Shown: in pieces, positions 15,119-63,600 of the stretch
Layout: every line of letters starts with the position of its first letter
Numbering within the stretch: position 1 is the stretch's first letter
NCBI GenBank assembly: GCA_031213475.1
Contig: JARUPZ010000009.1
Span: 4,993,601-5,057,600, forward strand
Length of the DNA stretch: 64,000 bases
Direction: 5' to 3'
From: Nereocystis luetkeana
Taxonomy: Eukaryota > Sar > Phaeophyceae > Laminariales > Laminariaceae
Notes under the pieces: generated by a model
What the model was told of the DNA's origin: nothing
Seen by the model: only the letters and a program-made list of their open reading frames with translations
The model's database searches: none
Translations under genes and position numbers: made by a program

Positions 15119-16488
15119 GTGCTGCAGCTGGTCGAGTTGACTGCGATGAGTGGTGCCCCGACATCGAAACCGGACGACGCCACCGTGGCCGATGCTGCGG
15201 CCGCAGCGGCCGCTCCCCGGAGCTTGGCGTCTAGCTCTGGGGGCTCGGCATCCGATGCTCGCCACGCTGGCTCTGGATCGGACTTCGTACGTGCCGCCGA
15301 CATGGCAATGTGGATGGGGCAAGGGGAACGTCAATTTGGCCTTGTTGCGACAAAATGCTGGCAGCCTCGGCGAGAACCGACGCGTCCATCGCGAGTATGC
15401 CAGAAACGGTGTCTGCTTGCGGGGCGCAGGGCGCCCACCTGGACATCGTGCTCCAGCAGGTTGTGGCGAATCAGGCCGCCCAAGGGGACGCTTCCCGCGA
15501 CGGTGGCGCCGCCCGGGAGCGGTTGCTGCAGAAGTCGCAGCTTGTTGACGAGGCTGCCCTCTGGAGATAGTAGGGCCCTGAACGGCATTGGATTCTCCGA
15601 GGCGGGCTCCCCCATCTTCTTGGCGATTCCCCGGTCGATGTCCATGCTTTCGTGGGGGAGTCGGTCAACGACACTGCCCGGGTGGCCACCGGTCAATGAA
15701 CGATTTCGACGTGTCCCAGTTCGGTCCCCGTACGGAAGGGGCCCCCGAGGGTTGTCTCATGGTCGCCGACCGTCTCGACGTCGTGAGTTCGGCTCTCATC
15801 GGGGTGCTGTCCGTTGGGCTGGTGCCTTCCGTGGACGCGGATCGGCCATGCTTGGAGCGGCTGGCTCCTCTTACCGCAGCCTTCTCATCGGCGTCCGCTG
15901 ATTTGCGTACTCATACGTTGTGTAATTACGCTAGCTTGTCGAGCGCCAAGGCGAGCTCTGTTATGTGGGAAATGGCCAACCACGACCTGCGGTTGTGGGT
16001 AAACGACATCATGCGTTTCGCTCTAACGAGTCAACCGCCGATGGTGCCGCATCCCTTGGACACAGGCCTTCGCCGTGCCTCCTCTACCGGCGTTCGGCCG
16101 GACGGCCGCTTTGTGCCAAGGAGGAGGGGAACTCCTTAAGATCGTCAGCGTAACGTCTCGGGGCCGCCTCGTGGGGGAAGGGCATTCTAAAAGTAAGGCT
16201 CCTGCTGTGCAGTCCTCTCCAGGCGCTGGGCACGCCAGGAAGAAAAGTTCTTATCTCCGCCATATGTTTGACAGCACGGGAAAGTGCAAGTGGCGCGATT
16301 GCATCTCCGTGCATGACGCTCCCCCCGCGGATTCGTCGTTTTCCGCCCCCTTCAGGGGGGCGGGTGGCGGCAGCTCGGCGTCGGCGGGGGGCGGGTCACG
16401 TGCTGTGCCCCTGCGAGCGAACAATGCTTCTAGGGCTACAGGTGGCTGCGGGGCTGCTGGGGGCGGCGGTCCCAGCTCCCGATGAAGA
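15119..16488 (+). pseudogene. YR-element ORF1 (gag-like), frameshifted
   Basis: Successive frames 15,119 onward, 15,310-15,570, 15,700-16,139 and 16,075-16,485 read as one broken protein. It begins Ala/Ser-rich, then has a helical middle around ERLAPLTAAFSSASADLR and MWEMANHDLRLWVND. It ends with CKWRDCISVH (C-x4-C-x3-H), a possible zinc-binding knuckle, and a Gly/Ser-rich tail. ORF1 of DIRS-order elements often ends in such a motif. The break points are judged from where composition and similarity to coding sequence switch frames. No enzyme domain is present. Confidence 0.6.
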
Positions 16489-16838
16489 CGCGGGCCCTTC
16501 CTTTCGGTTGGGCCGACATCACCCGGGGGGGTACGGCCCTGCAGACAGCCGGAGGGGCGGTAGCGGCGCCCGAGGCACGCGGGCAAAACCCCGGATCCGG
16601 TGGTTAAGGGCAGTGCCGGGAGGGGGCTTCGGGGGCGCGCGTTGGATGCTCTGGCTGGCGACGGCGGCGTTGTGGGAGATCGCGTTTCCGTGGCTCCGGG
16701 TTCCGTCTTCTTCGGGGAGAGAGGTATATTGGGTTTTTCTGCGCCGGCGTTACCGATTGGTCCATCGTGTACGGTGCATCAGCGTGTTTTGATCGAGTCG
16801 TGGCTTTCCGCTAAGGCTAGTGTTGCACGGTCGATGTC

Positions 16839-18845
16839 GTGGGTTGGCTCTGCGAGCCTCGATCGGGTCGCTGGCGTTGGTACGGTCTTGTTGCGGCGAT
16901 GTGTAGCATTGCATCCATTGTGGCTACCGTCGGGCCGTACAGCCTGGCTCCGCACATATGCCTGGGTACTGTGCGTCATTGGTTCGGGACCATCAAGCGC
17001 TTCCCGGCGATTAACCAACTGCGCCGCTTGTTGTCTCCGGGGTCGCCGGTGTGCGTTGACCGGGGGGGTGAATTAAATACTGAACCTGACTACGGCAATC
17101 ACCCGAGCGCGCTCCCGCATGCGGCTGCTATTTTGGAGAAGGTGTGTGCGGACGTTACTTTTGGGCGTGCCATGTTGTTTGAGTTGGGCTCCGCTGCGGA
17201 AAATCGTGGGTTGCGTACTTCGCTCTTGGCTGTCGTTCTGGAACCCAAAGTTTGTATCGTTCATGATCTCACCTTTGCGCGCGCTGGCGTACGGACAAGC
17301 GTTAATAACGACACAATTTTTTCGTCGGCTCCGACTTGCGATCTCGGCAGCGTGCTTCGCGATATGCTCATGCGGGTGCTTTTCTTACGTCTGTCACACG
17401 GTACGGACGCCCAAATAGTCTTGTGTCGGGTTGACGTCGAAGGCGCGTTCTGGCAGGTTCCGGTGGACCCTGCCGGGGTGCCCGTCTTTGGGTATGTGGC
17501 CGGCGGTCACGTGATTGTGGATTTTCGTTTGCAGTTCGGGTGGCGTAACAGCCCCGGATTTTGGGGGTTTGGTTGCGTCGGCGCTCGAACATTCTTACAC
17601 TTATTCCACGTCGAAAACTGCTGTAGTGTCCGACCAAGGGGAGGCTGCCGTTGCGCACGTCGTAGTCGCCACACCGCGGGGCGGGCCGGTCGTGCCTCTC
17701 CCGAGCGACTGTCAGCCGGTGCCTGGCACTGGGGGAAATGCCGGGAGTTATTGTTTTGTATGGTATTACGTCGACGACGGCATCCTCGTTGAGCTGCAAT
17801 GGTGGCCAGTCGGCCGCCGTTGCCAGCGAGCGGTGCAGTCGCTGTTGAGGTGCAATGGTGGCCAGACGGCCGCCGTTGCCAGCGAGCGGTGCAGTCGCTC
17901 GCGTCGGACCACTTTCGCTTGCTGGGCGAACGTTGGATATCTGATCCCCCTCTCTTATCTAACAATAAAATCACTATATAGAATACTCGATTGGAGGTGT
18001 TGGGTTGGATCACAGACACTGAGGCCCTTACAGTGACGCTTCTGTCGCTTAAGCGAGACAAGCTCTGTAAGCTTCTCGCGGCGTGGCCGGCGTCTCGGGC
18101 CTCCGCTTCCGCGAACGAGGTGTCGAAGCTTGTCGGGTTTCTCATTCACGTCTCGTTCTCTATTCGTCCGGGGTCGTTCTTCGTGCAGCGCATGCTGGCC
18201 TCGGTGGGGATGCCGCGCATCACCGCCGGCGCTGACTTCGCGTGTCGTACCGTCAACCCCGGGCGGCAGGTCGTTCTCGGGCCCCGAGTTCCACATGGAA
18301 CTCGAGCTTTGGCGGTGGTTCGTTGCTGAGGGGCTCGACGCGCTGGGGGGTTGCTTGTCGGCTCCGATGTACCACCTGCTTGAGCCCCCGGCCCGACGTG
18401 CTCTGTTTTCGGATGCTTCCAAAACGGCGATCGGGGGGTTATGCCTCGAAACTGGCGTATACTGGCTCGTTTATGTGACTCGAGTAAGGCCGTCGCGGGC
18501 GAGAACGATATTTCCATCAACGTCCTCGAATTGTTAGGGATCGTGGTGTCGGCTTGGGTCCTCGTGTCTCCGTGCGCGGAGCGCCCGTCTGCGACGGGCG
18601 ACTGCGTTCTGTTGCGTGGGGACAACGAAGCCGTCTCGGCGTGGGTGCGACGGTGTCGTGGGGGTAATGAACCCCGATCTGGGGGGTTGATGCGCCTCCT
18701 CGGGGCGTTGGAATTGTTTTCGGGTTGGCATTTTGATGCAAAACACGCGCGGGGAGTTTTTAACGTCGCCGCTGATGGTATATCACGCTGGGATCGCGAC
18801 CGTGTTCTCCACAACCTGCACTCCGTTCGTCCTGATATACCGTGA
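16839..18845 (+). pseudogene. YR-element reverse transcriptase-RNase H, frameshifted
   Basis: RT motifs occur in order: CRVDVEGAFWQVPVD near 17,430 (first catalytic Asp), QFGWRNSPGFWG near 17,540, then YYVDDGILVE near 17,770 after a +1 frame change. A 56-bp tandem duplication at 17,795-17,906 follows the YVDD box and by itself changes the frame back. A TAG at 17,979 interrupts before LGWITDTEALTVTLL. RNase H follows: FSDASKTAIGG (18,410), NVLELLGIV (18,515), RGDNEAVSAWV (18,615) and ARGVFNVAADGISR (18,750), which supply the Asp-Glu-Asp-Asp set. Further shifts lie near 18,270 and 18,470. The RNase H stop overlaps the start of the recombinase frame. Confidence 0.85.
17795..17906 (+). repeat. 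56-bp tandem duplication inside RT
   Basis: TGCAATGGTGGCCAG begins at 17,795 and again at 17,851. The two 56-bp copies differ by a few bases. Removing one copy joins the YVDD frame to the downstream RT frame. Confidence 0.9.
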
Positions 18846-19882
18846 CAGGCTCAAGATTTGGGGAAGGACGGGACAGATTTCCGTACTTCCGTGTTGGCCT
18901 CGAACTCATGCGCAATGCAGTTGCGGTCTCGTCTGAACAGACTTATCTGGGGCATTTTGGCGCCTGGGTAGACTTCAGGGTAAGTTGTGCAGTGCCGGTT
19001 TTTCTCCAGCACTGTCGTGAAGATATAGCCAACGTGTGGTGTTTGTTTGAGTACGTAGCGAACTCGTTTGCCACCAAACTATTGAGGTCGGCGACCATCA
19101 AAAGTCATTTGTCGGCGATCAAATACTTTCACCGTACTTCGCGCGGTTTCGAGCTCGACACTACCCACCCTATTATCGCTAGCGTCCTCAAGGGCGCTGC
19201 TCGTTCGCACGCCAACGTGGGAAACCAAGCTACCGTGCGTAAACCTATTTCATGGTGGATGTTCCTTGCTGGCGAGGCTTTGATTACATCTTGGCGCTCT
19301 GGGAGTCAAATTATGTTGCTTACTTTGTGTGCTTCGTTTTGCTACTTGACCCACGCGTCGGAATGTTTGCGGAAACGAGGTCGCGTACTTCCGAGTCGTA
19401 TTGTTTGCGGCGGGCCGACGTCGCGTTGTTCCGCGGCGAGGCCCAGCTGGCCGAAGCACTGTGGTCGACCGCTCACCGCGTTGTGGTCTGCTTTCGCATT
19501 TCAAAGGGGGATCAGCTGCGAATATCGGCTGTGCTGTCTCGTGTGCGGGAGGGTACTCCGAGACCCGTGGGCGCCGGGGGGGCGCCGTCGATCTTATGAT
19601 CGAGTTGATGTCTTGTTACTTGTTCCCTCCTTCGTCGGCTCGTCTGGTTGCGTTCGATACCGGCGACGGCAGATGGGCCATGTGGACCAAGCAGCAAGGG
19701 ATGGCTGCCCTGCTAGCGGTAGTTACGTTGGCGGAGGATTACGCCCTGCATTCCCTGAGGATTGGAGGCGCAACTCACCTGTCGGCCGACGGGGCTACAT
19801 CGGAGGTCTTGCAGCGTGAGGGGCGGTGGGCGTCCGACGCACACAAGGCGTACGTACGCAGACATGGGGAGGACACCGGTTG
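18842..19882 (+). pseudogene. YR-element tyrosine recombinase, frameshifted
   Basis: The frame starting near 18,842 reads SEQTYLGHFGAWVDF, a SAM-like core-binding segment, followed by SATIKSHLSAIKYFHR. It changes frame near 19,370 and again near 19,590. The C-terminal catalytic end is intact in its own frame: HSLRIGGATHL (H-x-x-R) near 19,750, then REGRWASDAHKAYVRRH, whose Tyr is the expected nucleophile, and a stop at 19,882. The first catalytic Arg should lie near LTHASECLRKR, and its exact position is uncertain. Such an enzyme would insert a circular DNA copy without target duplication, in line with the AAG junctions. Confidence 0.85.
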
Positions 19883-20129
19883 AGTGGCAAGCGTGGTGGC
19901 CCTAAAGGGCATAAGTAATGGACCCCTGCCGGGGCAGGGTACGAAGTGGGGGCAAGTGGCTGCACGCCCCGGACTGGGTGAGAAGCGGTAAAAGTGGGGG
20001 GTGCCTAGGATGGCTATGCGAGCCAGGCGGACGGAGGGAGACGTTGTAGAGCGTCGCAACAAGTGCGTTGCGGGGGGGGGGGGGGGAGGGGTAGCGTTAG
20101 CATCAACAACGTGAGCCAACTCCATGTTG

Positions 20130-31727: not shown

Positions 31728-32076
31728 CTTTTTTTTTTTTTTTTTACTCATCCAATTTTTTATCTTCGCACGTCGTCTTCTATATCTCCTTCCAACTCGT
31801 AACTCAGATCCGGGGTCGCACAGCAGGCTCTGCTACCCCCTTCCCTCTACGGTACGTGGCTTCATTCTGATCGCGAGAAGATTTCAGGCTTTTCTTCCCT
31901 CGTCGACTCGCATCGAATTGTGCCTATCCACGCTGCAAGGCGCTCCCAACAGTTGAATCCATTTTATTTTTATTTTTGCAACTGAAGTCAAATGTCCGAC
32001 CTACCTGGGCCTCGAACCCAGGACTAAAAACACAAGAAGAATTCGAGGTTAACCACTTGAACGACCGGGGTGACCG
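31728..32076 (-). mobile_element. tRNA-derived SINE, copy 2
   Basis: Reverse complement of the SINE at 51,171-51,512. The poly-A tail appears as poly-T at 31,728-31,745. The body contains words such as AGATCCGGGGTCGCA, matching the plus copy. The tRNA-like head at the right end has A box CGTTCAAGTGG and B box GGGTTCGAGGCC. Flanks share only a partial GTGTCG..TTAA, so the target duplication is eroded. Not a functional tRNA gene. Confidence 0.88.
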
Positions 32077-46888: not shown

Positions 46889-46970
46889 ATGCGTTTTGCC
46901 CAACGTTTTCTGAGCGCGGGAGCCGTGCTCTTTATGGCGCTTTTCGCTCACGCCCAAGAGGAAGGTGCCG
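46889..46970 (+). CDS. Exon 1: signal peptide
   Basis: ATG CGT TTT opens MRFAQRFLSAGAVLFMALFA, followed by HAQEEGAG. A basic start, a hydrophobic core (AGAVLFMALF) and a small-residue site AHA before Q are a textbook signal peptide of about 22 residues. The exon ends GCC G and is followed at once by the consensus donor GTGAGT (phase 1). The next exon must therefore supply two bases, as the Cys-module exons do. Exon length is 82 bases. The second Met (FMALF) is inside the hydrophobic core, so the first ATG is the better start. Confidence 0.65.
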
Positions 46971-49900
46971 GTGAGTGTCGAGACCTCTACACGGCGTGCA
47001 TATTGTTCGGGGGAAGTTATTATCATCGCTGGGGTTGCGGCCACAGGAGTTGATTCGGGCGTTAGACAATACTACCGCTATGTCAAGGAATATACCTGGG
47101 TAACGCTTTTGAGTGTGAGTTTGGTTTGTTTTATACTCGCACCGCAGGATTGTTGAGCATGGCTGAGGTGGATGAACTCAATACGATATCCACTTTCAAG
47201 TAACATTGATATATTCCAGTGGCGCTTTCTGGCTATTCAACCCATCTCGTCTGTTGCATGTGTACGACTGGCCAAATACCGCCTCCCGAACCCTACAGAC
47301 GGATCCAAGTCAGAGTCTAGGCATCTGGTTGACTGAATCGTGTGGGCTCACCATCTGTAAAACCTCTTTTTACCCCAGCAAACATGAATCATGTCAATTA
47401 CGCTCGATTCTGACGCTCGTTTTCTCCCGAGCTGCATACCTTTCTCCCCTCCGTCATCTTCGTTCGAAAGTGGTTCGTCGTATGATGTCGCAGGCTCCTG
47501 AACCACAGGGTTTCTTATTACCCATGGCACATTTCGTCACGAATGGATCCGTGAAACGCCTTGGCGTACCACCTAGAGATAATGGGAAGACTGGCGTGCT
47601 TTTGCGCTTGCAACGATCCTTCGTACGGCTTGGTTCGATGTGTTCAGGTTTACTCTTCTTGTTTGGTACACACCTAGTCGCAGATTCGTGTAAACAGGTA
47701 CATCCTTAATCATTCTACTGGACTCAATACGTACGTCGTGTGGGATACAAGCGGTGTTGTGAACCAAAAACCGAGACTTGTTTTTTTGGTCGGTTTTGTG
47801 TCGGTTTTTCGGTTGGAAAAATAAACCGAAACCGGAACACTAGTCACGGTCGGCTTTTTTTTCCTGTCCCCTACCCCAATAAAGCCTTCATATAGGTATG
47901 GAAACCCCTTTATATTTTTGTGGATACATGCGCCACTCGCGACACAGCCAGCACACAGCCCATAGCCAGCGCGCCGCCGACATCCCGCAACATCATTGCA
48001 GTACGTATAGTAGCACGGCACACAGAAGCACAGCATAGGCACCAGGCAACAGTTGTTGCCAGGGCACAGGACAATGTGCTCCGCAAGACTGCGAGGGATA
48101 AATCATATTCAATGAAAACGGCAGTGCTGACTCCTTCGTTTGCTGAATTGCTCTCGCACTGCGACATTCGCCCTCTGCTTACAATGGAGCTGTTTCGTCT
48201 TTACACCACCCCCTTGAGTAACGAAGATTTACTCAAGGCTCACGGCGTTAGCTGTATGCTGCAAGTTGTGTCTTCACTATCTTACAGAAAAGTTATTTTG
48301 CAGCAACTAACGGCTGTATCTGTAATTATTGTTTGTTGCGAAATATCTGCACGTCTGACGGGCCTCGTCTTACGTGCCAGAATGAAAGATTTTGTCGCCC
48401 TGTACAGTCTGGCGCAGAAGACGCAGGTACTGCAGGAGAGCTATTTGACACCATACGTTCACATGTCACCTTTATGCCAACACATGCACATGAAACACTT
48501 CGAAACACTGACTATTTCATTCGGTTTGACGAGAATCCGACCGAGACCCCAACCGAGAAATATTCGGTTTCGTTTTTGGAGAGTTTAAACCGACCGAAAC
48601 CGACCGACGTTTTCGGGGAAAACCGAAACACCCGCCGAGCCCCTTTTCACTTTCGGTTCACAACACTGGATACTAGTTCCGATTTGAAAATTAGCATCGC
48701 CTTGGGCAACACTGCAGATACCCCAGATGCACGAGAACAACGATGTAGCGCACATGATACAAACCGAACCAAACCAGACTGCTTTTGAACTATTTCCTAG
48801 CCTTCTTCAAGCAGCCCCGATGGTTTGTCTCATATATGGGCGGCCGTAATTCGAGTACTGGTGGATCTTCCGGCAAATGCTGCGTGGGGTCACTGGGTAC
48901 AGGCGCAAACGTGACTACCGTGAGGAGGGACGCGGAACACCACGGTCCGTTTTACAGCCTATGATCCGCGTTTTTTCGAGAGAGGTCAACACAATAAGAA
49001 CCCGTCCGGAAACAGCATTTCTTGACCCTAGAAAACAAAATCATCCCTACTACTGTAGCTGACATTTCTACTGGACTACAGCGGAATGTACCATACACGT
49101 TCTTGTGCAGATCCTTGGCAGGGTGTCGTCCAGGACGCCAGGTATGTCCCCTTTCACGGGTCGAATCCATTCCTTTGTTGATGAGGAAACTTTGGCGTCC
49201 TGCCTTTGAGGCTACTTTGGCGTCCAACCCCGCTCCCGACATGACGATCGCACAGCTAATCCTTACGGGCTCCCTCTCGTTCTCCGTCTGCCTACACCTC
49301 CGCACTGCGACCTTGACCCGTGTGCGGTACGAAATGAACTTGATGAAGAGTGCGCCCTCGACGCAGAATGTTCGTCGGACTGCTGCGTGCCGCAGGAATT
49401 TACATCAGTTTGTGTCGGTGAGTTGATGTCATGTAAAAGATAATACGTGGGAGGAAACTGTCGATACAACACGCACCGGGGGCGGAGCATGAAGTCTTAT
49501 TAAATTCAACGTCGACCTGCATGGCAGCAAGTGCAAACGTGTGTTGTGTGGCACGGGGCACTCCCGAACCATGGCAAACATTTCTTCATTCGTTTCATCT
49601 TGAAGCGCGTACATTGCCGATTTAGAACCTGTGTTTTTTGTGTGAAAAGCGTACGGGCAGAATGGTAAACTACGTGCATATGAGTGTCGCAGAAGCGATA
49701 CTGTTGTAGCGGTGCATGGTTGGAAGAACTCTGTATCATATCAAATTCGGGATTAACTATGTTGGCCATGTGAAGTGATAATTGTGCTAGTGGAGGGCAG
49801 ACGTCTGTTGAACCGAGGAAAACATGTCTCGCCACGCACAACATAGTTGAAAAGGCGCATAAATGGCGGGGGTGAGAGGTTGAATGCTTTCACTGGACCG

Positions 49901-52900
49901 TCGATCTTAACCCACATACAACAGACAAAACGGAAAAATGGGAACGAAACAAAAAATGGGAACGGACGGTTTTTTTTAGAAAGCAAACCAATTGTGTACA
50001 ACTCCAAGAAAAAACGTTGACAGTCCTGTGGGGCTGTACAGCAGCCTTCGAATGAGCTGTCGCTCAGGCTGGAAGTCCTCGGCATCGCCGCGGTAGCCAG
50101 CATCTAGAGAAATCACAATAGAGCCAGCGTATATCGCTTTTTGCGCCCACCCGAAGGCACGAGATGGAGCATGACCGTTCTGACGAGCTCCTCTCACAGG
50201 GCTGGCCAAGGGGTTTCGCAGGATCATTTTGGTTCTCTGATACACCACATGGTTCTGGAGATACGGCTTGGTTCTCATTTTAGGCTTCGTTCCCATTTTT
50301 TCGATTTGTCTGTTATACCTGGTATGTATTTCTCGTTAAAAATGGAACGGTATACCGTCATTGGACAAACAGACAACCTCCAAAACGGGGAGAGGCAGTA
50401 CGTCAATGATCCCTACTCGTCCACGGTCCCCGAACGTAGAAAACGGCCCGATTAACCCTGCTGCATCTGGTTGTTTTTGAGTTTTATATTTGGATTGTGA
50501 ACCACGTTGTACGCCATTTCGGGAAAACGTATATGCTTGATTCCTATACGGCACTTTCACAAGAATGTACTGTAGACGTTAGATCATAGTTTGGCCGTCT
50601 GTAGGCAGTTCGGCAAAAAGTAAAATACCGCATACAGTTCCTCGCATACTTTGTAAAAAACTAGATGATGGTATTTTAGTCCTCGTGTACAAACACCTGC
50701 TAGTAAAAAAAAATGTATGTGTGGCTTTTCATCCTAACAAACGAAACAACATAGTTTCAATGGTACTCGAGGGAAGCGACCGGCATTTCACTAGACAATT
50801 ATCAAAGACGCTGTACGGAATACGGTCCAGCCTGTCTGTGACCCCGACATATTGAACCAAATTAACCAGCTGCAAACCAAAGACATCATCGGCGTCATCA
50901 ACCATCTACACACAGCGTGGGCACCCGGCAGTACCGGTAGGAACGAACGTGTTTCGCGCTTGCCGTAAGACTAGGGTCGTTGTATCTCGGAGATCGGTCA
51001 GAGTCATCGTGCGTACACCCAGATGTCAAATATCCTCAGTTCGTTCCTTTTGGTCGTTGATTTACGTTTCAACACCCATAAGGGGTGACATGAAAAATAT
51101 TCGGCCACTTTATACCCACATCGGTCATATCGTATAGTCATACTCACATAATGTACGCAGTTCCGACGGTCCGGTCGCCCCGGTGGTTCAAGTGGTTTAC
51201 CTCGAATTCTACTTGTTTGAGTCCTGGGTTCGAGCCCCAGGTGGGTCGGACTTTGACTTTATTTGCAAAAATAAAAAAGGATTCAATAGTTGAGAGCGCC
51301 TTGCAGCGTGGATAGGCACAATTCGATGCGAGTCAACGAGGGAAGAAAAGGCTGAAATTTTCTCGCGATAAAAATGAAGGCACGTACCGTAGCGGGAAGG
51401 GGGGAGAAGAGCTTGCTATGTGGCCCCGGATCTGAGTTACGAGTTGGAAGGAGAGAGAGAAGAAGATGTGCGAAGATAATGAATGGGATGATAAAAAATA
51501 AATAGGTAAAAACATAATGTACGCAGTTCCGACGGTATGATTTGAGGCATTGTGGTAATGTCGTACGATCCATGAATCGTTGTGCACCTGGAGGACGAGC
51601 GGTGTTCTATGGTATTTTCCAACGGCACCATTTCCAATAGCCGGTGCCTAATACGGATGCGCCGTTCGCGCGCCTCTTTGCTGTTGCGTTTGAATTTACA
51701 GCTGCCAGGAGCGCACCCAACGGCAATTCTTGCAGTGCGCAAGATGGATGCGATTGCGCGTCTGGGAACTGCAACCGCGGCGTTTGTGAAGGTACGACGG
51801 GCTCGCGCACCGTGACGGTTTCGTGTGAGAACTGGGGGAAGTCGTCCGTCAGTGTGCTCGATGTTTTAGATCAGCTGTAGTTCGGCTGCTAAGGGACCCC
51901 AACAATAACAAATATCAACACCAGGCGTGGTTCAAACTCATCGTCGTGAGTGTTATTATTGAATTTGCGACATATTGTGGTGAGAAATCGAGAGGGCGAC
52001 AATAATTGAAGCATCGTCCTATTCCCCTTGTACGAAGTACATGACGCGTTCAACGATAGAGGTAGCACATGACGGGGTTCTTTAACCCATAATCGTCAGA
52101 ATGTCAATCTTGTTTCGGAAAATGTTTTCTTTGGGTACTTGGGCCATGGGATTATTCATCGGGATGCAATTTCCTATTTGGTGAGGTCACTTTTCAGGTG
52201 AGGTATGGAGCTCCTAAAGTGTGGAGCCCCAGAAAAAAAGGAGTGAACCTCTATCGTAGAACACCTCACATCTGCGTCGAATGCTCATCATTAATAGGCC
52301 CACCATTGGTTTTAATTGGTATATCACACCCGTGCACGCTCATCGCGGGCCAAACGCACACAAAAATTTTGAAAAAAACTAAATGTATGTGATAATGAGG
52401 CACAGTCGATAGAAAACCTTTAATCAACGGGGCTTCGGAAATAGGTTCGGTGTAACAGCAGTGATCTTTATGTACCGTATGGTTCCAGAAGCAGCATTCC
52501 CCGAACGTAAAAAACTGACAGAAACGGCATGGGGTTGGTCTGTGCCATCGATGTGTGAAGTTTTCATGTGCTTGATTATAAAAACCACGTGTGCAAAGCT
52601 ACTTCCTACATGTTCGACCTTGGTTTAGGGCCATCACGTCTGTGTGTGCTCTCCATTCTGTTGAATGGGCAAAATATATATGTTCGTATTCATATTTTGA
52701 CTTGTTTCGCCGACCGCCGCAAAAAAAAAACCATCTGAACGACACGCTCATCGATTCTACAAGCCGCTGTTCAAATCAGGTCAAAAACGCTGTACTGAAA
52801 CTGCATCAATTAACGTGGAATTGCCTTTCGTTCGACAGCGGGAAATTTTGCAATACGTTAGAAATACCCAGTTTTGTTCCGGTGCCCTACAAACGGTATC

Positions 52901-55900
52901 AGACCCGGGCACGGCTGTCGTAGGCTACTTACGGACGTCTTTTCGACAGCACACATGCAAGACTAGTTCAACAAAAACACACTGACGGGTGCCAAATACA
53001 CGTCGTGGGGATAGGCAGCCTCTCCACACTTAGCCCTGGAGGCGAGTCGCATTGTTCGCTTGTCTGTTTCGCAGAACTACAGTATCACCAGTGCTGGTAT
53101 ATTCATAATTCCACAAGTATTCCCCATATACGAACTGCACTTATGTACCGGAATCACCTCGAAGCCCCGAATACGTCTATAAAACGTTGAGCCGAGGGTA
53201 TTTTCATCGTCTGTAGAAGAAGCCGCAGTGTACTCGTATTCCACCTTTTAATCCTTCCAGTTTTGTTTCCGACAAGCCTCCAGCCCATTACGAAGTCATT
53301 GGTTCCTGCCCTCTCCTCGTCTGCCCGTTCGACGTCTTGGCGCGTCAAAACCGTGTGCTGTGCTTGAGACAGAGTGCGTTATCAGCTTCCAGTGTGAGTC
53401 GGGGTGCTGCGCGCCGTTCCTCTCCAGAACCTGTGTCCGTGAGTATGAGTCGTACACGGTGAAGACGGGGTGTGAAACGTCCGCTGCTTCACCCTCGATA
53501 AGCATTTTATTTGTGCTTCAGCGAATGCCAATGCACATCGAAGCCGTGAGAACATAAGTTTCAAACAAAACCAAGTTTGACCATTCGATGATATACCACA
53601 ACTCAACGTATGTAGCGTGGGGTGTGTGTGCCGGGGATACCTACAGCCCCTATACAGTAGGAGATGGCCATTGTATAAGAGTTGGATAAGATGCGGTACG
53701 TATCTCCGATGGTTGAACAATTATTATCTGATCCAATGGATGTGATCCTTCCGCTTATGTATGCTGGAAATATTTCGAAAAACTTCAGTGCGAGTTACAC
53801 GGGCGATCGATTTGAGATAAGGGAACGTGACAAGTGACGCTGCCATAAACACCTCATGTACAAATATATTGACAAACACATTGACCACGGATCAAGCCGA
53901 ACTGTGAGGTCATAATAAAACCACAAAGTTTAATACAATTTCATCCCCCCGCCACCATATCTGTCAAAACGTGATATCTGCAAGAAACTCCCAACTGCAA
54001 CCAGAGTCACGATATCCTCCATTCACATAGGTTTCATGTCTAGGAAGTGCTCTTGGTCTATGCAACTCCGAAATAATACATACCCCAGTTCGGCGGTATA
54101 AGTGTCGACACTATACATCCCCGTTTATCTTTTCCTAAGGACATTAGCGCTGCCCTGGGTAATTATACCAAGCTAGGTTAGAAGATTCAGATATGCAACA
54201 TCGTATGTTACGAACAAGTCATTTGTCCACCCACGGGCATCGTATGAATTACATTGAATGTGGTCTCCTCGTACATCACGTATGTATTGCTGATTTCTCC
54301 GTGGTATCCCCCGGGTAGGAGGGGTCAAAAAGCGACTGAGGATTATCGATATGGTAGCCATTTCAAATATTTAGTTCTTGGAATGTCACCCAAGTATGTA
54401 CGTGCACGACAACTCCCAGTCCGCAGAGTAGTGCCATACCAGATGGAGTGAGTCTCGCGCTGGATATGGCGCACCGTTGCAAGGTGTTTGACTAGGATAT
54501 TACCCTAACGATTTATAGCTTTCCGCTCATGTCTAAGGACACAGTCGTCAAGTTGCACCCAGCACACGTTTTTTAATGCAATGGCTGCGGTCGAGAATAT
54601 TCATGCCGCCGGTCACACGCCGTATTTCGTTTCGCCGTCTGAACAGCGTCGGGAGCTACTGACATAGGGAAGCCGTGTTTCACGCAAACTGGATGTGACT
54701 GCGATTCTGCAGCATGCATTCTCTGCCAAGAAGCAGGGTGCACTGGCCTCGTTTGTCAAGAAGGTGAAGGTTTTACATTTTTAGGCGCATTCGATAAAGC
54801 TTAGGCGATCTTCAGAAACGCACAATCGACGACGAGGTGTCTAGGCGCTCACAAAACTTTGCAGTTTAAAAGTTCCGAACTAGAGCAGCATTGTAAATGG
54901 ATTAGGCATGGTTTTCTTTGTACGGCGGGTCCAGTTCTACTTTTGGATTTTCAGTCTGTCGGTCGGAGTTGACTGTTGGCTGGTCTAGTGTGACGGTCAA
55001 TACAACGTGGTTTTGTGATTGGGACCGGATCGGACCGGGTGACATTGTGGGGCTTTGAATTGACTTGGTTTTTGTGAGCGGACATCAAATCGTCTTTTTT
55101 TATGAGTTTTCATTGATTACCTTTGTTGTTGCGTGATGGTCGATATTCACCTTTTGCTATTGTACGCGTGTGGAGGACGACCTTGATTCGGGCTTGCATC
55201 GGGGTCGAATTTGATTTAATTCACAAATAGAAAAGAGATCCCTCGGTTTCCTTTCCGCTTGGGGGTCGTTCTCCTTTTGTTTGTGTTCGTATTTAGTTTA
55301 CGTTAGTCTGCCTATGTCTCTACGTCCTTCTGCAGTTTGCAGTGTGTGTGGGAATTGTTCTGATTTCAGTGTTGATATCGAACTTAGCTAGCCCCTCAGT
55401 GGGGCATCGAAAATGACTTCGTATGGGCTTCGAAATTTACTTTGTTGTTGTTCGGGTTGATGCTCTTTTTTTGCCTTTATTATTCGTGGGCGTCGATGGC
55501 GTTGGCGTTCATTGGTGGTCAAATTTACCTGGTTTATGAGTCTTGGCATCCTAATGGGGTTGCAGTAGTATTCCCACTCTTGCGCGAAGTGCGGAGTTCA
55601 ACATGAAATCGTCGGCGAATTCATCAGGAGGTTCGGTCAACATCCCAGCTATACTCTCCCAAAATCGTTGATACTTTTAGGTCGCTGAATGTCAAACCGA
55701 TTGGGTTCCATTGATGGTGTTCTCTAACGCCCCACCAAGGACGACGTAGCAAACACGACCGAGTGAGACAAGATATTACCGGAACCCCGCTCTGTGGTCA
55801 GTGGGAACAAGTACGAAGACGAACAATACGGGGAACGAACCATCACCTCTGGCTATCTGACGTCTACGTATCTGCTCGGACATATGCATATCAAGGTAAC

Positions 55901-58900
55901 CCCGCCTCCAGCCAATATGCATTAACAGTAGGGTATACTTCCAGATCTTACTGCCATGCACCAAACACGTCATAATGCAAATACGTCGAAGTATGGACGC
56001 TAAGACACGAATATCGCGAATACTCCGCATCCAAGGCCCTATTTGTTTATATGGACAAACTTCCGCGAAGTAGCGCTGGGACTAGCATAGTGTCTAGCCG
56101 CGCTTCCTATATGACGATCGTTCACGCAATTGACACCGTATTTCCCCCCGTTCTTTGTCTGCCACTCCGGCCGCCCTTGTATATCGATCCGGTGGGTTAC
56201 GCCTTTCAAAGTATGTCGTGACGACGCCATTTGCGACTCAAATTGCTGCGGAACGCTTCGCGACATTCCCTATTGTGTCGGTGAGTTCGAGGACGTACTT
56301 TACGAATCGTGAACACAAGGTACCACCCTAACCTAGCGGGGAACGTATCCGCTCATACACTGCACTCGTGTACCGCTTCCATATTTTTTTCATATGTCGC
56401 TAATCGACAAACCGACGTAACTTTTAGTGATACGTACAAGTACCTCAAATATACAATGCAAGACGTATGCCCAGAACCCTTATGCCGATAAGCGCCACAC
56501 TAGCGTTAATTTGTTGGCGGAGAGTGGTTAGGGATACAAACGTAAGAGATTCAAACAAATTGCAACAGCGGGGGTATACGATAAAATTGCTGCCTATTTT
56601 GAAATGTTTGCGCTACCATTAGATTTGGTGGCGGAGATACTCGATCGCGTTTGAGTGTGTACCTTTGTTGGACTCACGGCAATAAAAAAAAACACGCGCG
56701 CAGACTTGAAACATCGCCAGCGCCATGAATGTTTTCGTTTGCTCTCTTTTCTGCCTTACAGTTTAACAATGTTTCAATGGTCGCATATGTTATCTTTTAC
56801 TATGTCCGTTTGCTACATTATGCAGCTCACGGGACAATACCCAACGGGGACGAATGCTATACGGAAAATGGATGCGACTGCATGTCTGGGAATTGCATCT
56901 TCGGCACTTGTGCAGGTGCAGTGGAAAACAGTTTGCTCTGTTTGTTTTGTTTTTGATTGTATCATGGCGAATAGAAGTATTTTTCACACCAGTTTCAATT
57001 CACAGTTATTGAATACCAGGTACACGCACTTTTGTCGCCCGAGCCGTGCGTCCTCCGTGCTTACGTGCCATGAGCTGCAGTGCCCAGAATAGCGCGGAAC
57101 TATATCATGCCTGCGTCAATATGTGTGTCTGGAGCTGCCCCATACCTTACCTCACTCTTTGTCGCCGTGATCGTTTTGAGGCCCTCCGTGGCATGCTGGG
57201 ACGTGTGAAGTATCTGATCCTGAACGCCAGCATTATTTTGTTCACTTGGAGCACAGTGATCTAGTGTAGGTGGGCAAGGAATGTTGTTCGAGTCGCGAAT
57301 CGGGTAAGCAATAGGGCCCAGTACGACGATGCCGTGTATATCTCGAGGGAGGCGTTCTACGACAGAGGTTCACCCAAATTCTTCTGAGGATCCTCACTTA
57401 AAGAGATCCATGCCTCTCTCGAAAACTGACTTCAGCGAAAAGTAAATTGCATCGCGGCGAATAAGTCCATGGCCCGATACACAACATTTTTATCGAAATC
57501 AAAATTGGCAACCCAACGATTAGGGATAAGGAACCGCGTCTTTCAGAAACAAAATACGAGATATCAGCTACGTCTACCGTAAAACGGGTCCTCGGATGAC
57601 ATGTTTTGGGTGTAAACCCCGGCAAGCTAAACGGCCACATATAGCAAGGACCCAGACCATTTATACCGCGGACGTAAAAAAGATATTTTGAACGCGTTGA
57701 ACAATGTAGCGAACCCCACAACGTGTCGATGTCTTCTTCAATCAAACGCCAAAAAGGTCTCTACAGAACTCCGCACCTTCACACGGTTGACTGGACGGTC
57801 ACACTAAGTGACGAGGGGGTCCCGGCCATGTGTGACGCGTTTGGAGGTCGTGTGTAAGATCTCTGAAGAAAGCCGCAGCTACCTATGCGGGTTGTTGTTC
57901 TCAGACGTCGGTAAGCTCTCTTACGAGCAAAGGGTAGCCATTTCTCACGAAAAAGTTTGTATTCGTGCTTTCATGAACTGTGGCGCTCTGTACGGTAGAG
58001 TGGGTTTTACTTGGTTAAGTGGCTGCATACGAGGCCTGCAACCGCCGCGAAATAGTTGAGTGTGCCAATGCGTCGTGATTTAATGGTTAAAGCCCTGTCG
58101 GGCGGTCAATCGCATTTGAAACATGTGAGTATTTTCTGTATACAGGAAACCACATTCCTGGTACGCACATCAGTGGAAGGCATAATACACTACGAAAAAT
58201 CAGTGGTTTATTCCAAGGTTTACACAAGGTTTGCACGTTTGTTTTGCGGAGGTGGTGAACTCTGTTCTGACAGCATTGCGAGCATGTTGAAATTCGTCTC
58301 TCTCGAAACACGTACTGCACGTGAATTGTCAAAACATCGCGACGAAAAACGTCGTACTATCGATGCCCGTGTTTTGAACATTCTTCTGGGCCACGGTATT
58401 TTGGAATGACTTTGATCCTGCAGTTATTATTGGCTTGTTTAGCAGGAACGTTAAACGCCTTAGCACTCACCTTATCATGTCAAAGCGTATACGAGACTTG
58501 ATGAACACCACACGGTACCCGGAGACATTTGACTCACAAAATACCTAACCCTACAGCGGGTAGACTACCTAATCCGTTGGATCTTTTCACGTCAACTAAC
58601 CCAGTGTGCGTAGGCATCTCTTCATTGGCATCACCGTATGGTTTTACCAACGATTAAGATACGTGATTTTCCGTCTACCCTAGCCTAAACATAACCGTTG
58701 CGGTCAACGTTACTCTGATGGCTAGGAGTTAAAAGTCGACCAGCGTCCACACCGCGCGTAACCCACAAACGTATCGATAGCTCTTCTACCAAACCGCCAG
58801 TGACACTCCAAACCCATCCCATTGGCCGCTTGCTGCGCTGCCCCCTTTCCGCCCTAAACGATGCAGCTTGTCCCGATGGGACGAGCATGTGCAACGACCC

Positions 58901-59777
58901 ACATATGCTAGGCCTTCGTGGTCAGACTATAGACTGGTCCGGTGTCGATGGCGGCTGGTACTGCCTGGTAACGGAGGACAACGCCAACGTCCACGTCAAC
59001 GTAAGGCTCACCGCCCCTCTGCCCGAGGAGTTCCCTGACCGTCAACTGATTACTGGCCTGAGCATAGTGTCCGACGGGCACTCTCTTGTGATCGAGGTGA
59101 CGAACCCGTACAGTGTCGAAACAGACGGCTGCCATGGGGGAGTGTCGCCTTGCCTTGCCAATGGAGGACTTCGCGCAATCGTAGACGGGGAGGAGGTTGA
59201 TGGGCTTCTTAGTTCTTGCAGACGGGAGTACGTTGCGGATGGCATAGCTTTGTCCGCGTCCAATCTACCCGTGGAGTGCCGACAGTTTGGCGGGGAGAAG
59301 ATATGGGCGCGCATGTACGAGGAAATGTTGCAAGGAAGTCGTGAACTCACCAAGGAAGAAGTATTCGAAGACTGGGTGTTACGGTTTCATCACATGGCCG
59401 CACCCGAGTGGTGCACGAAGTACATCGCACAACACGACCTGGTGGATCTGCAGTCTAACCACGCTATCTTTAAGATCGAAAGTTCGGCTGTCACCGTGCG
59501 TCTCAACGTCGGTACGAATTTCCAAGGCTACGGCGAGGTAGACTGGGATGGGCGTGTCCTGCCCGACGTAGAGTTTTGGCAGATGGACGTGGGATTCCAC
59601 GGCCTATCGGTCGAAAGTGAGTCGCTGTCTGGAATGTTGGGTGAGACGGCCAGACCGGTTCTTGACAAAACCGGCAACATGGTAATGAAAGGGTTTGATG
59701 CCTTCCGTGGGACAGTCGAGGACTATCGGGTCTCCGGATCCATAGGTACCGACTTTGCCCTACTGCACCAGACGTGA
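46889..59777 (+). CDS. Inferred multi-exon gene: secreted modular Cys-rich protein with C-terminal DPH-type domain
   Basis: Inferred exon order: signal peptide (46,889-46,970), then module exons I (49,256-49,417), II (51,702-51,791), I (core 53,351-53,438), II (54,647-54,763), I (core 56,175-56,280), II (56,826-56,915), I (core 57,826-57,910), then a 325-codon terminal exon (58,801-59,777). All donors from the signal exon through the last module interrupt a codon after its first base. The clearly defined acceptors restore two bases, so modules are symmetrical 1-1 and can be duplicated without breaking the frame. Modules alternate I/II, which suggests repeated duplication of a two-exon unit. 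Predicted location is secreted or cell surface, with many disulfides. The span is a join of separate exons, not a continuous frame. Missing or extra exons are possible, and transcript evidence is absent. Confidence 0.55.
47752..48668. mobile_element. hAT-like non-autonomous transposon in intron 1
   Basis: Terminal inverted repeats CGGTGTTGTGAACCAAAA (47,752) and, reverse-complemented from the right end, CAGTGTTGTGAACCGAAA. Flanking 8-mers GATACAAG (47,744-47,751) and GATACTAG (48,669-48,676) match at 7 of 8 positions, the size expected for hAT. Both ends are crowded with subterminal ACCGAAACCG-like words in both orientations, typical of transposase-binding regions. Length is 917 bp. It carries one long frame (47,920-48,588) but no transposase motifs. 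Confidence 0.85.
47920..48588 (+). other. 222-codon open frame inside the hAT-like element, function unknown
   Basis: Starts at ATG 47,920 and stays open to 48,588. Composition changes from His/Arg/Thr-rich at the start to a Leu/Val-rich middle (LQQLTAVSVIIVCCEISARL) and ends in the Arg-rich translation of the subterminal repeats, which argues that at least the 3' part is not selected as protein. No BED finger, DDE or hATC dimerisation motif is seen. It could be captured host sequence or chance. Confidence 0.25.
49256..49417 (+). CDS. Exon: type I Cys module, first copy
   Basis: The core reads DPCAVRNELDEECALDAE, then CSSDCCVPQEFTSVCV. Spacing is C-x9-C-x5-C-x3-CC-x8-C. The exon ends GTC G before the consensus donor GTGAGT at 49,418 (phase 1). 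The candidate acceptor GATCGCACAG gives two leading bases and a length of 162 (2+53x3+1), a symmetrical 1-1 exon. The upstream part of the exon (LPLVLRLPTPPHC) also resembles the sequence ahead of the 53-kb copy (SPRLPVRRL), so the exon may really extend this far. The ICK-like cysteine pattern suggests a small disulfide-bonded fold, which is inference. Confidence 0.6.
50199..50314. repeat. 116-bp dispersed repeat, copy 2 (in intron 2)
   Basis: Near-identical to 25,774-25,889. Homology stops at CTGTTA, exactly where TACCTGGTA (50,316) begins in this copy. Confidence 0.92.
51147..51170. repeat. Target-site duplication of the SINE, left copy
   Basis: 24 bases starting CATAATGTACGCAG and ending CCGACGGT, repeated exactly at 51,513-51,536. 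The preceding base also matches, so the duplication may be 25. Confidence 0.95.
51171..51512 (+). mobile_element. tRNA-derived SINE, copy 1 (in intron 2)
   Basis: A tRNA-like head with an RNA polymerase III A box TGGTTCAAGTGG (51,194) and B box GGGTTCGAGCCCC (51,228) is followed by a roughly 260-bp unrelated body and an A-rich tail ending AAATAGGTAAAAA. The perfect 24-bp target duplication shows a recent L1-style insertion. The inverted copy at 31.7-32.1 kb shares head and body. The tRNA fold is imperfect in the acceptor stem, so it is not a tRNA gene. The parental tRNA is not identified. Confidence 0.93.
51513..51536. repeat. Target-site duplication of the SINE, right copy
   Basis: Identical to 51,147-51,170. 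Confidence 0.95.
51702..51791 (+). CDS. Exon: type II Cys module, first copy
   Basis: Acceptor TTTGAATTTACAG, then two bases, 29 codons and a final G before GTACGA (phase 1-1, 90 bases). The core is NGNSCSAQDGCDCASGNC followed by NRGVCEG, that is C-x4-GCDC-x3-GNC-x3-C. The 56.8-kb copy has exactly the same length and reads GDECYTENGCDCMSGNC. The GCDC signature and the fixed exon length separate this module from type I. Confidence 0.68.
53351..53438 (+). CDS. Exon core: type I Cys module, second copy
   Basis: Reads KPCAVLETECVISFQCESGC then CAPFLSRTCV, aligned with the 49.3-kb copy (PCAV...C...C.S.CC.P...S..CV). Ends GTC C before consensus GTGAGT (phase 1). The frame is open upstream to a candidate acceptor CCTTCCAG at 53,260, but that would give phase 0. 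The 5' border is therefore uncertain and only the core is listed. Confidence 0.58.
54647..54763 (+). CDS. Exon: type II Cys module, second copy
   Basis: Acceptor CGTCTGAACAG, two bases, 38 codons and a final G before GTGAAG (phase 1-1, 117 bases). Reads GKPCFTQTGCDCDSAACI, then LCQEAGCTGLVCQEG. It keeps GCDC but carries about nine extra residues with one more Cys pair than the 90-base copies. Confidence 0.62.
56175..56280 (+). CDS. Exon core: type I Cys module, third copy
   Basis: Reads PCISIRWVTPFKVCRDDAIC then DSNCCGTLRDIPYCVG. Cys spacing C-x12-C-x5-C-x3-CC-x8-C matches copy one except for three extra residues in the first loop. Ends GTC G before consensus GTGAGT. A pyrimidine tract (TTTCCCCCCGTTCTTTG) lies just upstream but without a good AG, so the acceptor is unresolved. 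Confidence 0.58.
56826..56915 (+). CDS. Exon: type II Cys module, third copy
   Basis: Acceptor ACATTATGCAG, two bases, 29 codons, final G before GTGCAG (phase 1-1, 90 bases, the same as the 51.7-kb copy). Reads IPNGDECYTENGCDCMSGNC then IFGTCAG. Only 545 bases separate it from the preceding type I exon, the shortest intron of the gene. Confidence 0.65.
57826..57910 (+). CDS. Exon core: divergent type I Cys module, fourth copy
   Basis: Reads RPCVTRLEVVCKISEESRSY then LCGLLFSDVG, ending GTC G before the donor GTAAGC (phase 1). Keeps PC and the next two Cys but lacks the CC pair, so it is either degenerate or specialised. Position immediately before the terminal exon preserves the I-II alternation. 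Confidence 0.42.
58801..59777 (+). CDS. Terminal exon: 325-codon domain with DPH...WSGVDGGWY segment
   Basis: The longest well-behaved frame in the right half. Acceptor CTACCAAACCGCCAG is followed by two bases and an open frame to TGA at 59,775, which fits the phase-1 donors upstream. It opens RCPLSALNDAACPDGTSMC, then NDPHMLGLRGQTIDWSGVDG and GWYCLVTED. A DPH motif with a glycine-rich GQ..D segment and an aromatic GWY is the look of vWD- or root-cap-like extracellular beta domains; this assignment is tentative. Paired Cys occur at TDGCHGG/SPCLANG, SSCRREY and VECRQF. The C-terminal third is hydrophilic, with no membrane anchor. An alternative donor, CAGAC/GTGAGC, overlaps the stop, so an extra 3' exon cannot be excluded. 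Confidence 0.7.
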
Positions 59778-60699: not shown

Positions 60700-63600
60700 C
60701 TAAGAGGTGGCATATATGATCTAGCAGTAGCACAGGCTCAGCCTCTCGTACGGGTATAGGGGTGCTGTCCGTAGTCACGCACAGATTCTCCGTTTTGAAC
60801 TCCAAGCGTACTTCCACGTGAATGTTGAGGGAGAGATTAACACAGTGGCCGCCAGTCGTTGGACATGTTGATTGACAGCTTGTCGTGAGACCTTTGCATG
60901 GCCGTTGACACTGGATTGTTCCTAGGGCCCATAACAACCAATACTACTCTCTCGTGTGCCTATAGAACCAATTGATTGAGAGCTAGTCGTGAGACCTTTG
61001 CATGGCCGTTGTCACTGGATTGTTCCTAGGGCCCACAACAACAAATACTACTCTCTCTTGTGCCTATAGTACCTGTTGACGGTATCGTTGTTATTTTTTT
61101 TGGCTTCTGAATTTATGTTCCCAAACCGAATACTGCTCATTACGTTTCCGAAATTGATGACCGCCGGACGCGTTTTATCTTGATTGAACAAAGGCGCCTG
61201 ACGCGTTTTATGTTGATTGAACAAAGGCTGCGTATCGTCGAGCTTTGCATCGTTGGCCCACTGGTGCTCAGAGAGGCTTCTGCTATTTGAACGGTGATTG
61301 TAAAAGAAAAGTGGAGCTTTTCTGCCTAGCGGATCAACCGAGGGCCAAGTCGGTAAAGTTAGCGAATGGTACTACTTGATCATAATGTTCCCGACCAGTG
61401 TCTAAGCCTGCGTACACGCGTCGGGGCCACAAAGTTCGCTTTCATATACATGAATGCCAACAGACGGTGTACCGAGATATCACTCAACTTGGTATAACTA
61501 CACCTATCAAACGTTGATATTTGAGTTTTATGAGTCACGTTGCTGAAGGGTATAATAAGGGCGTAGGTCTTCTAGGTCAGTGTGGGTGTGGTAGTGCCAG
61601 GGGGGTTTCCCCCCTTCTTGTCTTTGCGATATTCTCGCAGTTAAAGGGATACTCATGCCGAATGTCATCGCGTCATTCGTTTGTTTTCTGATATTCGAGG
61701 ATATGTATAGCACTATATCATCTTCTACATAAATAAAAGTATGTCTAGACTGTTTCTGGGCGGTTGAACTACCACCATCTGGAAGATGTATTCCTGGCCT
61801 CGAGCGTTTTTTACATCAGGCCAGAAAGCGTTCACGTTGTCCCGGCCTGAGATCAGGGTCTCGACGTATGAAACACGAACCATGTTACACCGTATATGCC
61901 GGAACCGATTCCAGCTGATATGTCCCAAGAGCACGAACTTGTGCGATATTTCCGAACAAGCCGTGCCGGTGTCGACTCTCACGTGAAAGCACTTTGTGAT
62001 GTCAGTACGCCTGTCTCTTGTCCAAGAATTCCATTTTTTAGGTGCATTCGCCAACAACCAGGCGAAGGTAAATCTAAATCTTCACTGACAATCAAAACCC
62101 AACATAAGACTACATACGCCCTCTCCTCATCACCAAGAGATATAGTATACATGCAACTATCGCACAGGAACTCAGGACTGAAGGTGAGCTTGACATGTTT
62201 TATCGCTACGGTGCGTATTGTGTTGTACATACAGTAGGTTGGTCAGATATGGCTCTCAAACGAAAAAACGCAAGTAAACCCGAGACCATATCCCATGTAA
62301 ACCAAACGAGTGTAGGAAGAGGGGGAGGGTGGGGAAAGTCGGCGAAAGAGCAGACACCGCCACTTAACAGAGGGATTGAAAACAATCAAACGTTACATCG
62401 TCAAGGTTTGATTAACCCAGAACCACCCTACACGATGCCAATCGACTCGAAGTAACACAGGAAACGGTTAGGGAGCCGAAAACAGCTATCGACAATTGGT
62501 GGGCATACACGTGGGCCCGAACCTACTAATAGTTTACGTTGAGGTAGCGCGCGGACGAAACATTCGTGTGGGAGTGCGGCAGAACCTCACAAATTCATAC
62601 GGGAACGTTTGTCACCGGTTCCGATGGCGGCGCTAGCGGTCAACGCTTGCACCCGAAATCTACGAGTAAACACAATAATCAACTCTAACTATATGTAGTG
62701 GTAAGTTCGATTGGCGAACTCACTTCCAAGTCAAACTTCACATACATGCGCCCTCAAACCCTACTATTGCCCGTTCAGAACATCCGTGATAAGTGTCCAA
62801 GGCCTGCCCTATGAGTTCCTTCTAAACGCCTCATTTCTGAGGTCTAATGGGAGTGTGAGAAAAGTGGCAGGAAATTATCTGGCTCGAGCGTCAACACGGA
62901 TTCCAACAAAATGCCTCACCCAGTTTCCTAAAGATAAGAAGGAAAACGGATATTGGCTGGTGAACGTTGCCCGGTCGGGACACTTTATATCCAGGTTTGG
63001 ACAAGGGTTGAAACCGTGTTTGAAGGATATCAGGTATCCGCCGAGAGTGGGGCGGCGTGTGCCACCAACTGTTCGCACGATTGGGAGTGGTCACGGTTAC
63101 AGGTGAACCCATAGGAGTTTACGGCCATCTCTGTGGAACAACTCTTTCGTGTCCACAAACTCGGAGAGGATGGCCCCGTTCTGACTGCAGCTTGGTGCCG
63201 AAGTAGATGTTGCTCATAACAGCCCCCTTGCAAGGCATCTGAACTTGGCCTGGCTGGACAACAACCTTCCGCGCTCTCAAAAGACTTGGGGCAACAAATA
63301 TTCTCATCCACACATCCACAACGTCTGAACAGGTCATCGATTATACTAGCCCCTGCACCCAATATAAACGCCTACGCCCGTGGAACGGAACCTGAGTGCT
63401 ATTGTGTGGTCGTTGGACAAGTCCTTAGTTTGGATTTAATGTCTGGGGAACGATGCTTACTCTAATGACCAACTACCCGCGGTCGGCCTGACGGGTTGAA
63501 AGTTAAATATTTCCATCGAGGCACCGGAGATGTCTGCGCCTAACCGAAAATGACTTCGACATGCAGATGCCAGCTAGAGCTCGTGACTCGTTTCAGAATA

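What the first reader, a model, noticed from the sequence alone, without database searches (positions are those of the whole stretch)
46889..59777. Exon-shuffled secreted gene with strictly alternating Cys modules
Seven small Cys-rich exons follow a signal-peptide exon in the order I-II-I-II-I-II-I and end in a 325-codon extracellular-looking exon. All donors are phase 1, and four module or terminal acceptors fit phase 1 exactly with exon lengths of 162, 90, 117 and 90. Two type II exons have identical length. This is the pattern of repeated duplication of a two-exon cassette with symmetrical introns. I do not recognise either module or the combination.
Basis: partly seen in the sequence, partly recalled or inferred. 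Interest (0 to 1): 0.85.

Follow-up and report, generated by a model that had tools for sequence, protein, structure and literature searches.

The report
Kelp secreted protein with paired cysteine exons
A brown seaweed, probably a kelp, carries a family of secreted proteins built from small cysteine-rich exon cassettes that occur in varying number and in front of different protein ends, the sort of exon shuffling usually credited to animals.

Summary
The cysteine modules are real. Strict type I and type II motifs occur three times each in the window, all on + inside the interval; 60 simulated windows gave none. The window's own genome (465 Mb) supports the gene model: several relatives of the last exon are preceded by the same kind of signal exon and I-II exons, with phase-1 junctions. 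A light-harvesting gene of this genome is 94% identical to a giant-kelp protein, so the host is a brown alga.

Corrections: the gene is SP-(I-II)x3-T. The seventh module (57020-57166) has no homologue found and fits chance. Type I exons are most likely 66-69 nt, not 162; the last exon 302 codons, not 325.

Why they alternate: each exon has an odd five-cysteine core; a pair gives ten cysteines in colipase/Dickkopf-like order, so one bond should cross the exon junction (inferred). Elsewhere the same exons precede a third module and a Pro/Ser/Thr-rich, membrane-spanning end. This supports class 1-1 exon shuffling outside animals. No transcript was available; function is inferred.

The parts
46889..46970 (+). 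Signal-peptide exon (27 codons + 1 nt, phase-1 donor GTGAGT)
   Evidence: a similar M-...-hydrophobic-...-AQ exon with phase-1 donor was found in 6 of 6 regions searched (window, p4, p9, p15a, p15b, L031). p15a had one further candidate.
49349..49417 (+). Type I exon 1, 69 nt, phase 1-1, five Cys (alternative start 49256 gives 162 nt)
51702..51791 (+). Type II exon 1, 90 nt, phase 1-1, five Cys
53373..53438 (+). Type I exon 2, 66 nt, phase 1-1, five Cys (alternative start 53277 gives 162 nt)
54647..54763 (+). Type II exon 2, 117 nt, phase 1-1, seven Cys (27-nt insertion with two extra Cys)
56212..56280 (+). Type I exon 3, 69 nt, phase 1-1, five Cys; only one in-phase acceptor exists
56826..56915 (+). 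Type II exon 3, 90 nt, phase 1-1, five Cys
58867..59777 (+). Terminal exon T, 302 codons + stop, one domain of an unnamed family with conserved DPH-x-x-G-x-x-G start
   Evidence: 117 matches in own genome; 27-row alignment; acceptor
57020..57166 (+).
   Evidence: Against:

Best explanation
The interval holds one gene of a brown alga (probably a kelp) for a secreted mosaic protein of 497 residues in the model: a signal peptide, three repeats of a ten-cysteine domain, and a C-terminal domain of about 300 residues. Each ten-cysteine domain is split over two symmetrical class 1-1 exons, I and II. Alternation is strict because each exon brings an odd number of core cysteines (five), so a pair is needed to close all disulfides; the cysteine order is that of the two-subdomain colipase/Dickkopf/prokineticin fold, in which one bond ties the halves together (pairing inferred, not shown). 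Because every junction is phase 1, pairs can be added, lost or moved between genes without breaking the frame, and relatives show one, two or three pairs before T, and other partners elsewhere in the genome. SHOWN by sequence: modules, phases, exon geometry, paralogs, different contexts. INFERRED: splicing itself, fold, secretion, function. Most likely function: an extracellular binding protein of the algal surface or matrix, whose loops vary on a fixed cysteine frame; recognition of self, microbe or matrix partners is possible but untested.
For: Motif counts 3+3 vs 0 in 60 simulations. Own-genome relatives of T: 117 matches. In 10 fetched paralog upstream regions, 4 of 10 have strict I and II motifs in I-II order, 4 more of the 10 have a variant type II only, 2 of 10 neither; an eleventh region (L031) has I-II-I-II. 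Type I: five Cys in 12 of 12 and phase-1 donor in 12 of 12. Type II: an in-phase AG exactly 9 codons before the first Cys in 14 of 14 (other in-phase AGs also present in 9 of 14), phase-1 donor in 13 of 14. Ten Cys columns invariant in 11 of 11 I-II pairs; exactly ten Cys in 8 of 11 pairs. Signal exon in 6 of 6. In the tandem pair p4/L031 module exons are 77-89% identical without gaps, introns 63-69%; dN/dS 0.33 for modules and 0.27 for T. Other contexts. Two-subdomain fold and disulfide layout of Dickkopf: passages of PMC6078440.
Against: No transcript or protein data. No Pfam family or PDB chain matches any module, the joined pairs or T at useful E-values, so the fold rests on cysteine order alone. 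Pairs with 11 (2 of 11) and 12 (1 of 11) Cys do not fit a plain ten-Cys rule. p15b's type II exon has no phase-1 donor in my scan. 2 of 10 paralog regions show no module within about 19 kb and 4 of 10 only a variant. The type I/II HMMs were built from the same modules they then found. Window I1 has lost the acceptor that its relatives use.
Confidence: 0.62

Rival explanations
1. Type I and type II are two independent small disulfide-rich modules that merely alternate; free cysteines form bonds between molecules (a cross-linked matrix) rather than between neighbouring exons.
For: Odd Cys number in each exon; variant type II occurs without a recognised type I in 4 of 10 paralog regions; L029 begins with a type II as far as the 10 kb fetched shows.
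Against: In the 11 adjacent I-II pairs examined the ten Cys columns are invariant, and of the type I exons found, 12 of 12 are followed by a type II on the same strand.
Confidence: 0.22
2. One reading: seven modules I-II-I-II-I-II-I with 162-nt type I exons and a 325-codon last exon.
For: The 162-nt and 147-nt frames are open and phase 1-1; the upstream AGs at 49255 and 53276 have better pyrimidine tracts by my count (0.60 and 0.68 against 0.36 and 0.48).
Against: Paralog acceptors lie at or near the first Cys; I4 has no homologue and fits chance; T acceptor position is shared by 7 of 12 regions.
Confidence: 0.1
3. The window copy is a decaying pseudogene of a real family.
For: Loss of the homologous I1 acceptor; weak donors GTACGA, GTGAAG and GTGCAG after the type II exons; a related locus (L030) is visibly decayed.
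Against: All eight exons of the model are open, phases agree, and T keeps a full frame with dN/dS of 0.14-0.16 against p9 and p4.
Confidence: 0.12

Closest known systems
Colipase / Dickkopf CRD / prokineticin ten-cysteine fold (animals)
   Same: Ten cysteines in the same order with CC in the first half, and two similar subdomains. Dkk4 CRD1 residue numbers in PMC6078440 (passages) give C-x5-C-C-x4-C-x4-C for its second half, against C-x5-C-x-C-x4-C-x4-C here.
   Different: No detectable sequence match in Pfam or PDB; loops much shorter; each half is its own class 1-1 exon; three copies in one chain; a brown alga, not an animal. Colipase and prokineticin spacings are recalled.
Metazoan class 1-1 exon-shuffled extracellular mosaic proteins (Patthy)
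   Same: Secreted, signal exon ends in phase 1, all modules flanked by phase-1 introns, variable copy number and context.
   Different: Passages of the review PMC8001218 pose exon shuffling as restricted to Metazoa; this is a photosynthetic stramenopile. Here the exon is half a domain (inferred).
Brown-algal ROCO LRR exon shuffling (and NB-ARC-TPR)
   Same: Brown algae, repeated symmetrical exons, variable copy number.
   Different: There: 72-bp LRR exons in phase 2 of a GTPase family (passages of PMC11378527). Here: 66-117 nt Cys exons in phase 1 behind a signal peptide.
VWD domain and plant Root_cap (PF06830)
   Same: A recalled likeness of the T start 'DPHM-x-G-x-x-G' to GDPH-type starts.
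   Different: hmmscan of 27 T members at E<=10 named neither family; a direct PF06830 search of the genome did not complete.
WAP four-disulfide core / inhibitor cystine knot
   Same: The third module (L029, L056) has C-x5-C-x5-CC-x4-C-x6-C in two of three copies; weak WAP hits.
   Different: WAP scores 11.2 and 13.0 bits lie under the 20.8 cut-off. ICK likeness is recalled.

Membership tests
Class 1-1 exon-shuffled mosaic gene | Modules bounded by phase-1 introns on both sides | tested here: met
   Window: 6 of 6 modules. All regions: type I donors 12 of 12, type II donors 13 of 14 (p15b none), type III 3 of 3 on both sides. From DNA only.
Class 1-1 exon-shuffled mosaic gene | Same module in different copy number and with different partner domains | tested here: met
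   1, 2 or 3 I-II pairs before T; II-I-II-III then a Pro/Ser/Thr-rich TM tail at C39; I-II-III-III at C9:5.58 Mb. Joining of these exons is inferred.
Class 1-1 exon-shuffled mosaic gene | Exons joined in mRNA | not testable with these tools
   No transcripts held.
Colipase/Dickkopf/prokineticin fold | Ten cysteines in the fold's order | tested here: met
   Ten invariant Cys columns in 11 of 11 pairs; exactly ten Cys in 8 of 11.
Colipase/Dickkopf/prokineticin fold | Sequence match to family models or solved members | tested here: not met
   none.
Colipase/Dickkopf/prokineticin fold | Five disulfides with one bond between the halves | not testable with these tools
VWD or Root_cap domain (T exon) | Match to the family model | tested here: not met
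   single-sequence AlphaFold model useless, mean pLDDT 33.9.
Brown-algal ROCO LRR exons | 72-bp phase-2 LRR exons | tested here: not met
   Exons are 66-117 nt, phase 1, Cys-rich.
WAP domain (type III module) | Score over the Pfam cut-off | tested here: not met
   11.2 and 13.0 bits against 20.8, two copies scanned.

The most novel reading that the evidence does not exclude
Brown algae evolved, independently of animals, a genome-wide system of class 1-1 exon shuffling for extracellular proteins, in which the mobile unit is half of a disulfide domain: two half-domain exons must travel or be kept as a pair, and the pairs are fitted to different ends (secreted T domain, or mucin-like membrane-spanning tail), giving a fast-varying repertoire of algal surface proteins.
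Probability: 0.45. Interest if true: 0.82.

Novelty: new variant of a known kind. Interest (0 to 1): 0.63.

Why it matters
Class 1-1 exon shuffling of extracellular modules is presented in the review read here (passages, PMC8001218) as an animal trait tied to animal multicellularity. A second complex multicellular lineage doing the same with its own cysteine modules would make the 'why phase 1, why animals' question testable by comparison. The split domain is also unusual, since the exon is not the folding unit. My paper searches listed no report of such genes in brown algae; those listings cover open-licence papers only, and 110 and 136 showed 12 of 709 and 8 of 451 papers.

Tried and rejected
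Rejected: I4 as an exon. Rejected as preferred: 162-nt type I exons. Considered and dropped: recent in-gene duplication (identity table); Coronavirus NSP2 hit of cassette 3 (E 0.9, chance); phrog minor tail hit of T (E 0.017); DEPTOR hits of the T profile (E 0.12 and above).

Led nowhere: viral contigs and prokaryote contigs (29, 108) hold no relatives; Rfam none (35); ARAGORN none (6); AlphaFold of T from one sequence, pLDDT 33.9 (80). Type I peptide search of the genome found only itself (59). A type I paralog query, a type III query and PF06830 did not complete (101, 103, 105, 114, 117, 135; 119, 121, 129, 131, 134; 77, 85, 88, 93, 96, 107, 111). Zambounis 2012 is not held. Searches failed on wrong frame or strand; on argument form; script 118 stopped with an error after its three type III results.

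Full report
WHAT IS THERE. The interval on the + strand reads as one gene. Exons in the preferred model are 46889-46970 (signal), 49349-49417 (I), 51702-51791 (II), 53373-53438 (I), 54647-54763 (II), 56212-56280 (I), 56826-56915 (II) and 58867-59777 (T). Lengths are 82, 69, 90, 66, 117, 69, 90 and 911 nt; every junction is GT/AG and phase 1; the chain has 497 residues and 40 cysteines. Strict type I and II motifs occur three times each in the 64 kb, all here and on +, against none in 60 first-order Markov simulations.

HOST. The window lies in a 465-Mb genome of 1987 contigs that has 68 matches to chlorophyll-binding proteins. One of them matches PDB chain 9ygv_17 with 146 of 156 residues identical (counted by eye). 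[quoted passage not shown] I infer a brown alga, probably a kelp, not necessarily Macrocystis.

THE TERMINAL FAMILY. T has 117 matches at E<=0.001 in this genome (115 of 134 candidates scored). An alignment of 27 gives invariant and near-invariant residues such as DPH, G and W. None of the 27 named a convincing Pfam family and the profile found no PDB relative (best E 0.12).

PARALOGS TEST THE MODEL. I fetched about 20 kb at each of ten close T relatives. Four of ten have strict I and II motifs in order on the gene strand: p9 and p4 with I-II-I-II, p15a and p15b with I-II. Four others (p38, p24a, p24b, p39a) have a variant type II about 2-4 kb before T, and two (p6, p39b) show neither. An eleventh region, L031, is a tandem copy of p4 with I-II-I-II. 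The HMM scan used models built from these same modules, so it is a check for extra copies, not independent proof. It found no further type I or II in the window.

EXON GEOMETRY. In type II exons an in-phase AG lies exactly nine codons before the first cysteine in 14 of 14 (window 3, p9 2, p4 2, L031 2, p15a, p15b, L029 2, L056); 9 of 14 also have other in-phase AGs. A phase-1 donor was found in 13 of 14, p15b being the exception. Type I donors are phase 1 in 12 of 12. Non-first type I acceptors sit 2 nt before the first Cys codon in 6 of 6, and first-position ones 3-4 codons before it in 5 of 5 paralogs. The window's I1 has lost that first-position AG; the next in-phase AG is 49348. A signal exon of the same kind was found in 6 of 6 regions searched. 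A phase-1 T acceptor 29-38 nt before the DPH codon was found in 7 of 12 regions.

SELECTION. Between p4 and L031 the module exons are 76.8-88.9% identical without gaps, T 90.2%, the introns 63.1-69.0%. Nei-Gojobori dN/dS is 0.33 for 98 module codons, 0.57 without shared Cys codons, and 0.27 for T. For p15a/p15b type I alone it is 0.69 on 24 codons. The exons are therefore coding and constrained, with looser loops.

WHY THEY ALTERNATE. Type I has five Cys in 12 of 12; I-II pairs have ten in 8 of 11, eleven in 2 and twelve in 1. Ten Cys columns are invariant in 11 of 11. Their order, with CC in the first half and C-x-C in the second, matches the two-subdomain fold of colipase and Dickkopf (recalled; Dkk4 residue numbers and the two-subdomain, five-disulfide layout from passages of PMC6078440). 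In that fold one bond joins loop and first half in CRD2. If so here, each exon is half a domain and neither half is closed alone. This is inference: no sequence-level match exists.

OTHER CONTEXTS. A type II query found 16 places, eight of them on the minus strand of C9 between 5.15 and 5.93 Mb, six at steps of 123.7, 113.6, 113.7, 113.6 and 113.6 kb, where the T search listed no match. Four kb of one copy (L056) show a type I (HMM E 1.2e-6), a type II by exon geometry (not found by the type II HMM) and two further Cys exons, type III. On C39 (L029, L057) lie II, I, II and a type III exon, then a 399-codon frame with a 263-residue stretch of 68% Pro/Ser/Thr and three hydrophobic segments. Type III exons are phase 1-1 in 3 of 3 (81, 81, 84 nt). 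The membrane tail recurs once more, at C39:2,033,317-2,033,620, about 4.5 kb downstream of a decayed type II exon. Both tails start at the homologous point behind a phase-1 AG. So the same module types stand before two unrelated ends.

KNOWN OR NEW. Exon shuffling in brown algae is known for LRR exons of ROCO genes (72 bp, phase 2; passages of PMC11378527). Class 1-1 shuffling of extracellular modules is treated as metazoan in PMC8001218 (passages). I therefore call this a new variant of a known kind. Function stays inferred: a secreted or surface binding protein on a cysteine frame with variable loops, in the matrix or in recognition.

Noticed in passing
G000:C9:5152295-5927911 (minus), L056: Eight type II module hits, six of them at near-regular 114-124 kb steps: a large tandem array of genes with I, II and a third Cys module and no T match listed.
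   Followed up: partly
L029 with L057 (C39:1940001-1952900), 11093-12289 of the joined stretch: A 399-codon frame with Pro/Ser/Thr-rich repeats and three hydrophobic segments downstream of II-I-II-III exons; reads like a mucin-type membrane tail.
   Followed up: partly
L030 (C39:2026001-2034000): A decayed relative: type II exon without several cysteines and an interrupted membrane tail.
   Followed up: partly
p38, p24a, p24b, p39a (L009, L011, L019, L021): A variant type II exon (C-x4-GC-x-C-x4-C-x8-C, phase-1 donor) about 2-4 kb before T with no recognised type I; p38 and p24a share an upstream signal-like exon.
   Followed up: partly
window 12107-12574 (-): Copia-type reverse transcriptase fragment (RVT_2, E 7.5e-18).
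   Followed up: yes
window 15000-20000: Long overlapping open frames that look, from recall, like a DIRS-type retroelement; three frames gave no Pfam match at E<=0.01.
   Followed up: partly
window 51170-51260 and 32005-32022: tRNA-like B-box sequences, possibly SINE remnants; 2 matches against 0.24 expected, no tRNA called.
   Followed up: partly
window 60868-61075 and 61162-61227: Tandem duplications of 104 nt (91% identical) and 33 nt (94%) downstream of the gene.
   Followed up: no
window 52141-52267 and 57349-57475: Inverted pair of 127 nt, 78% complementary, lying in two introns of the gene.
   Followed up: no
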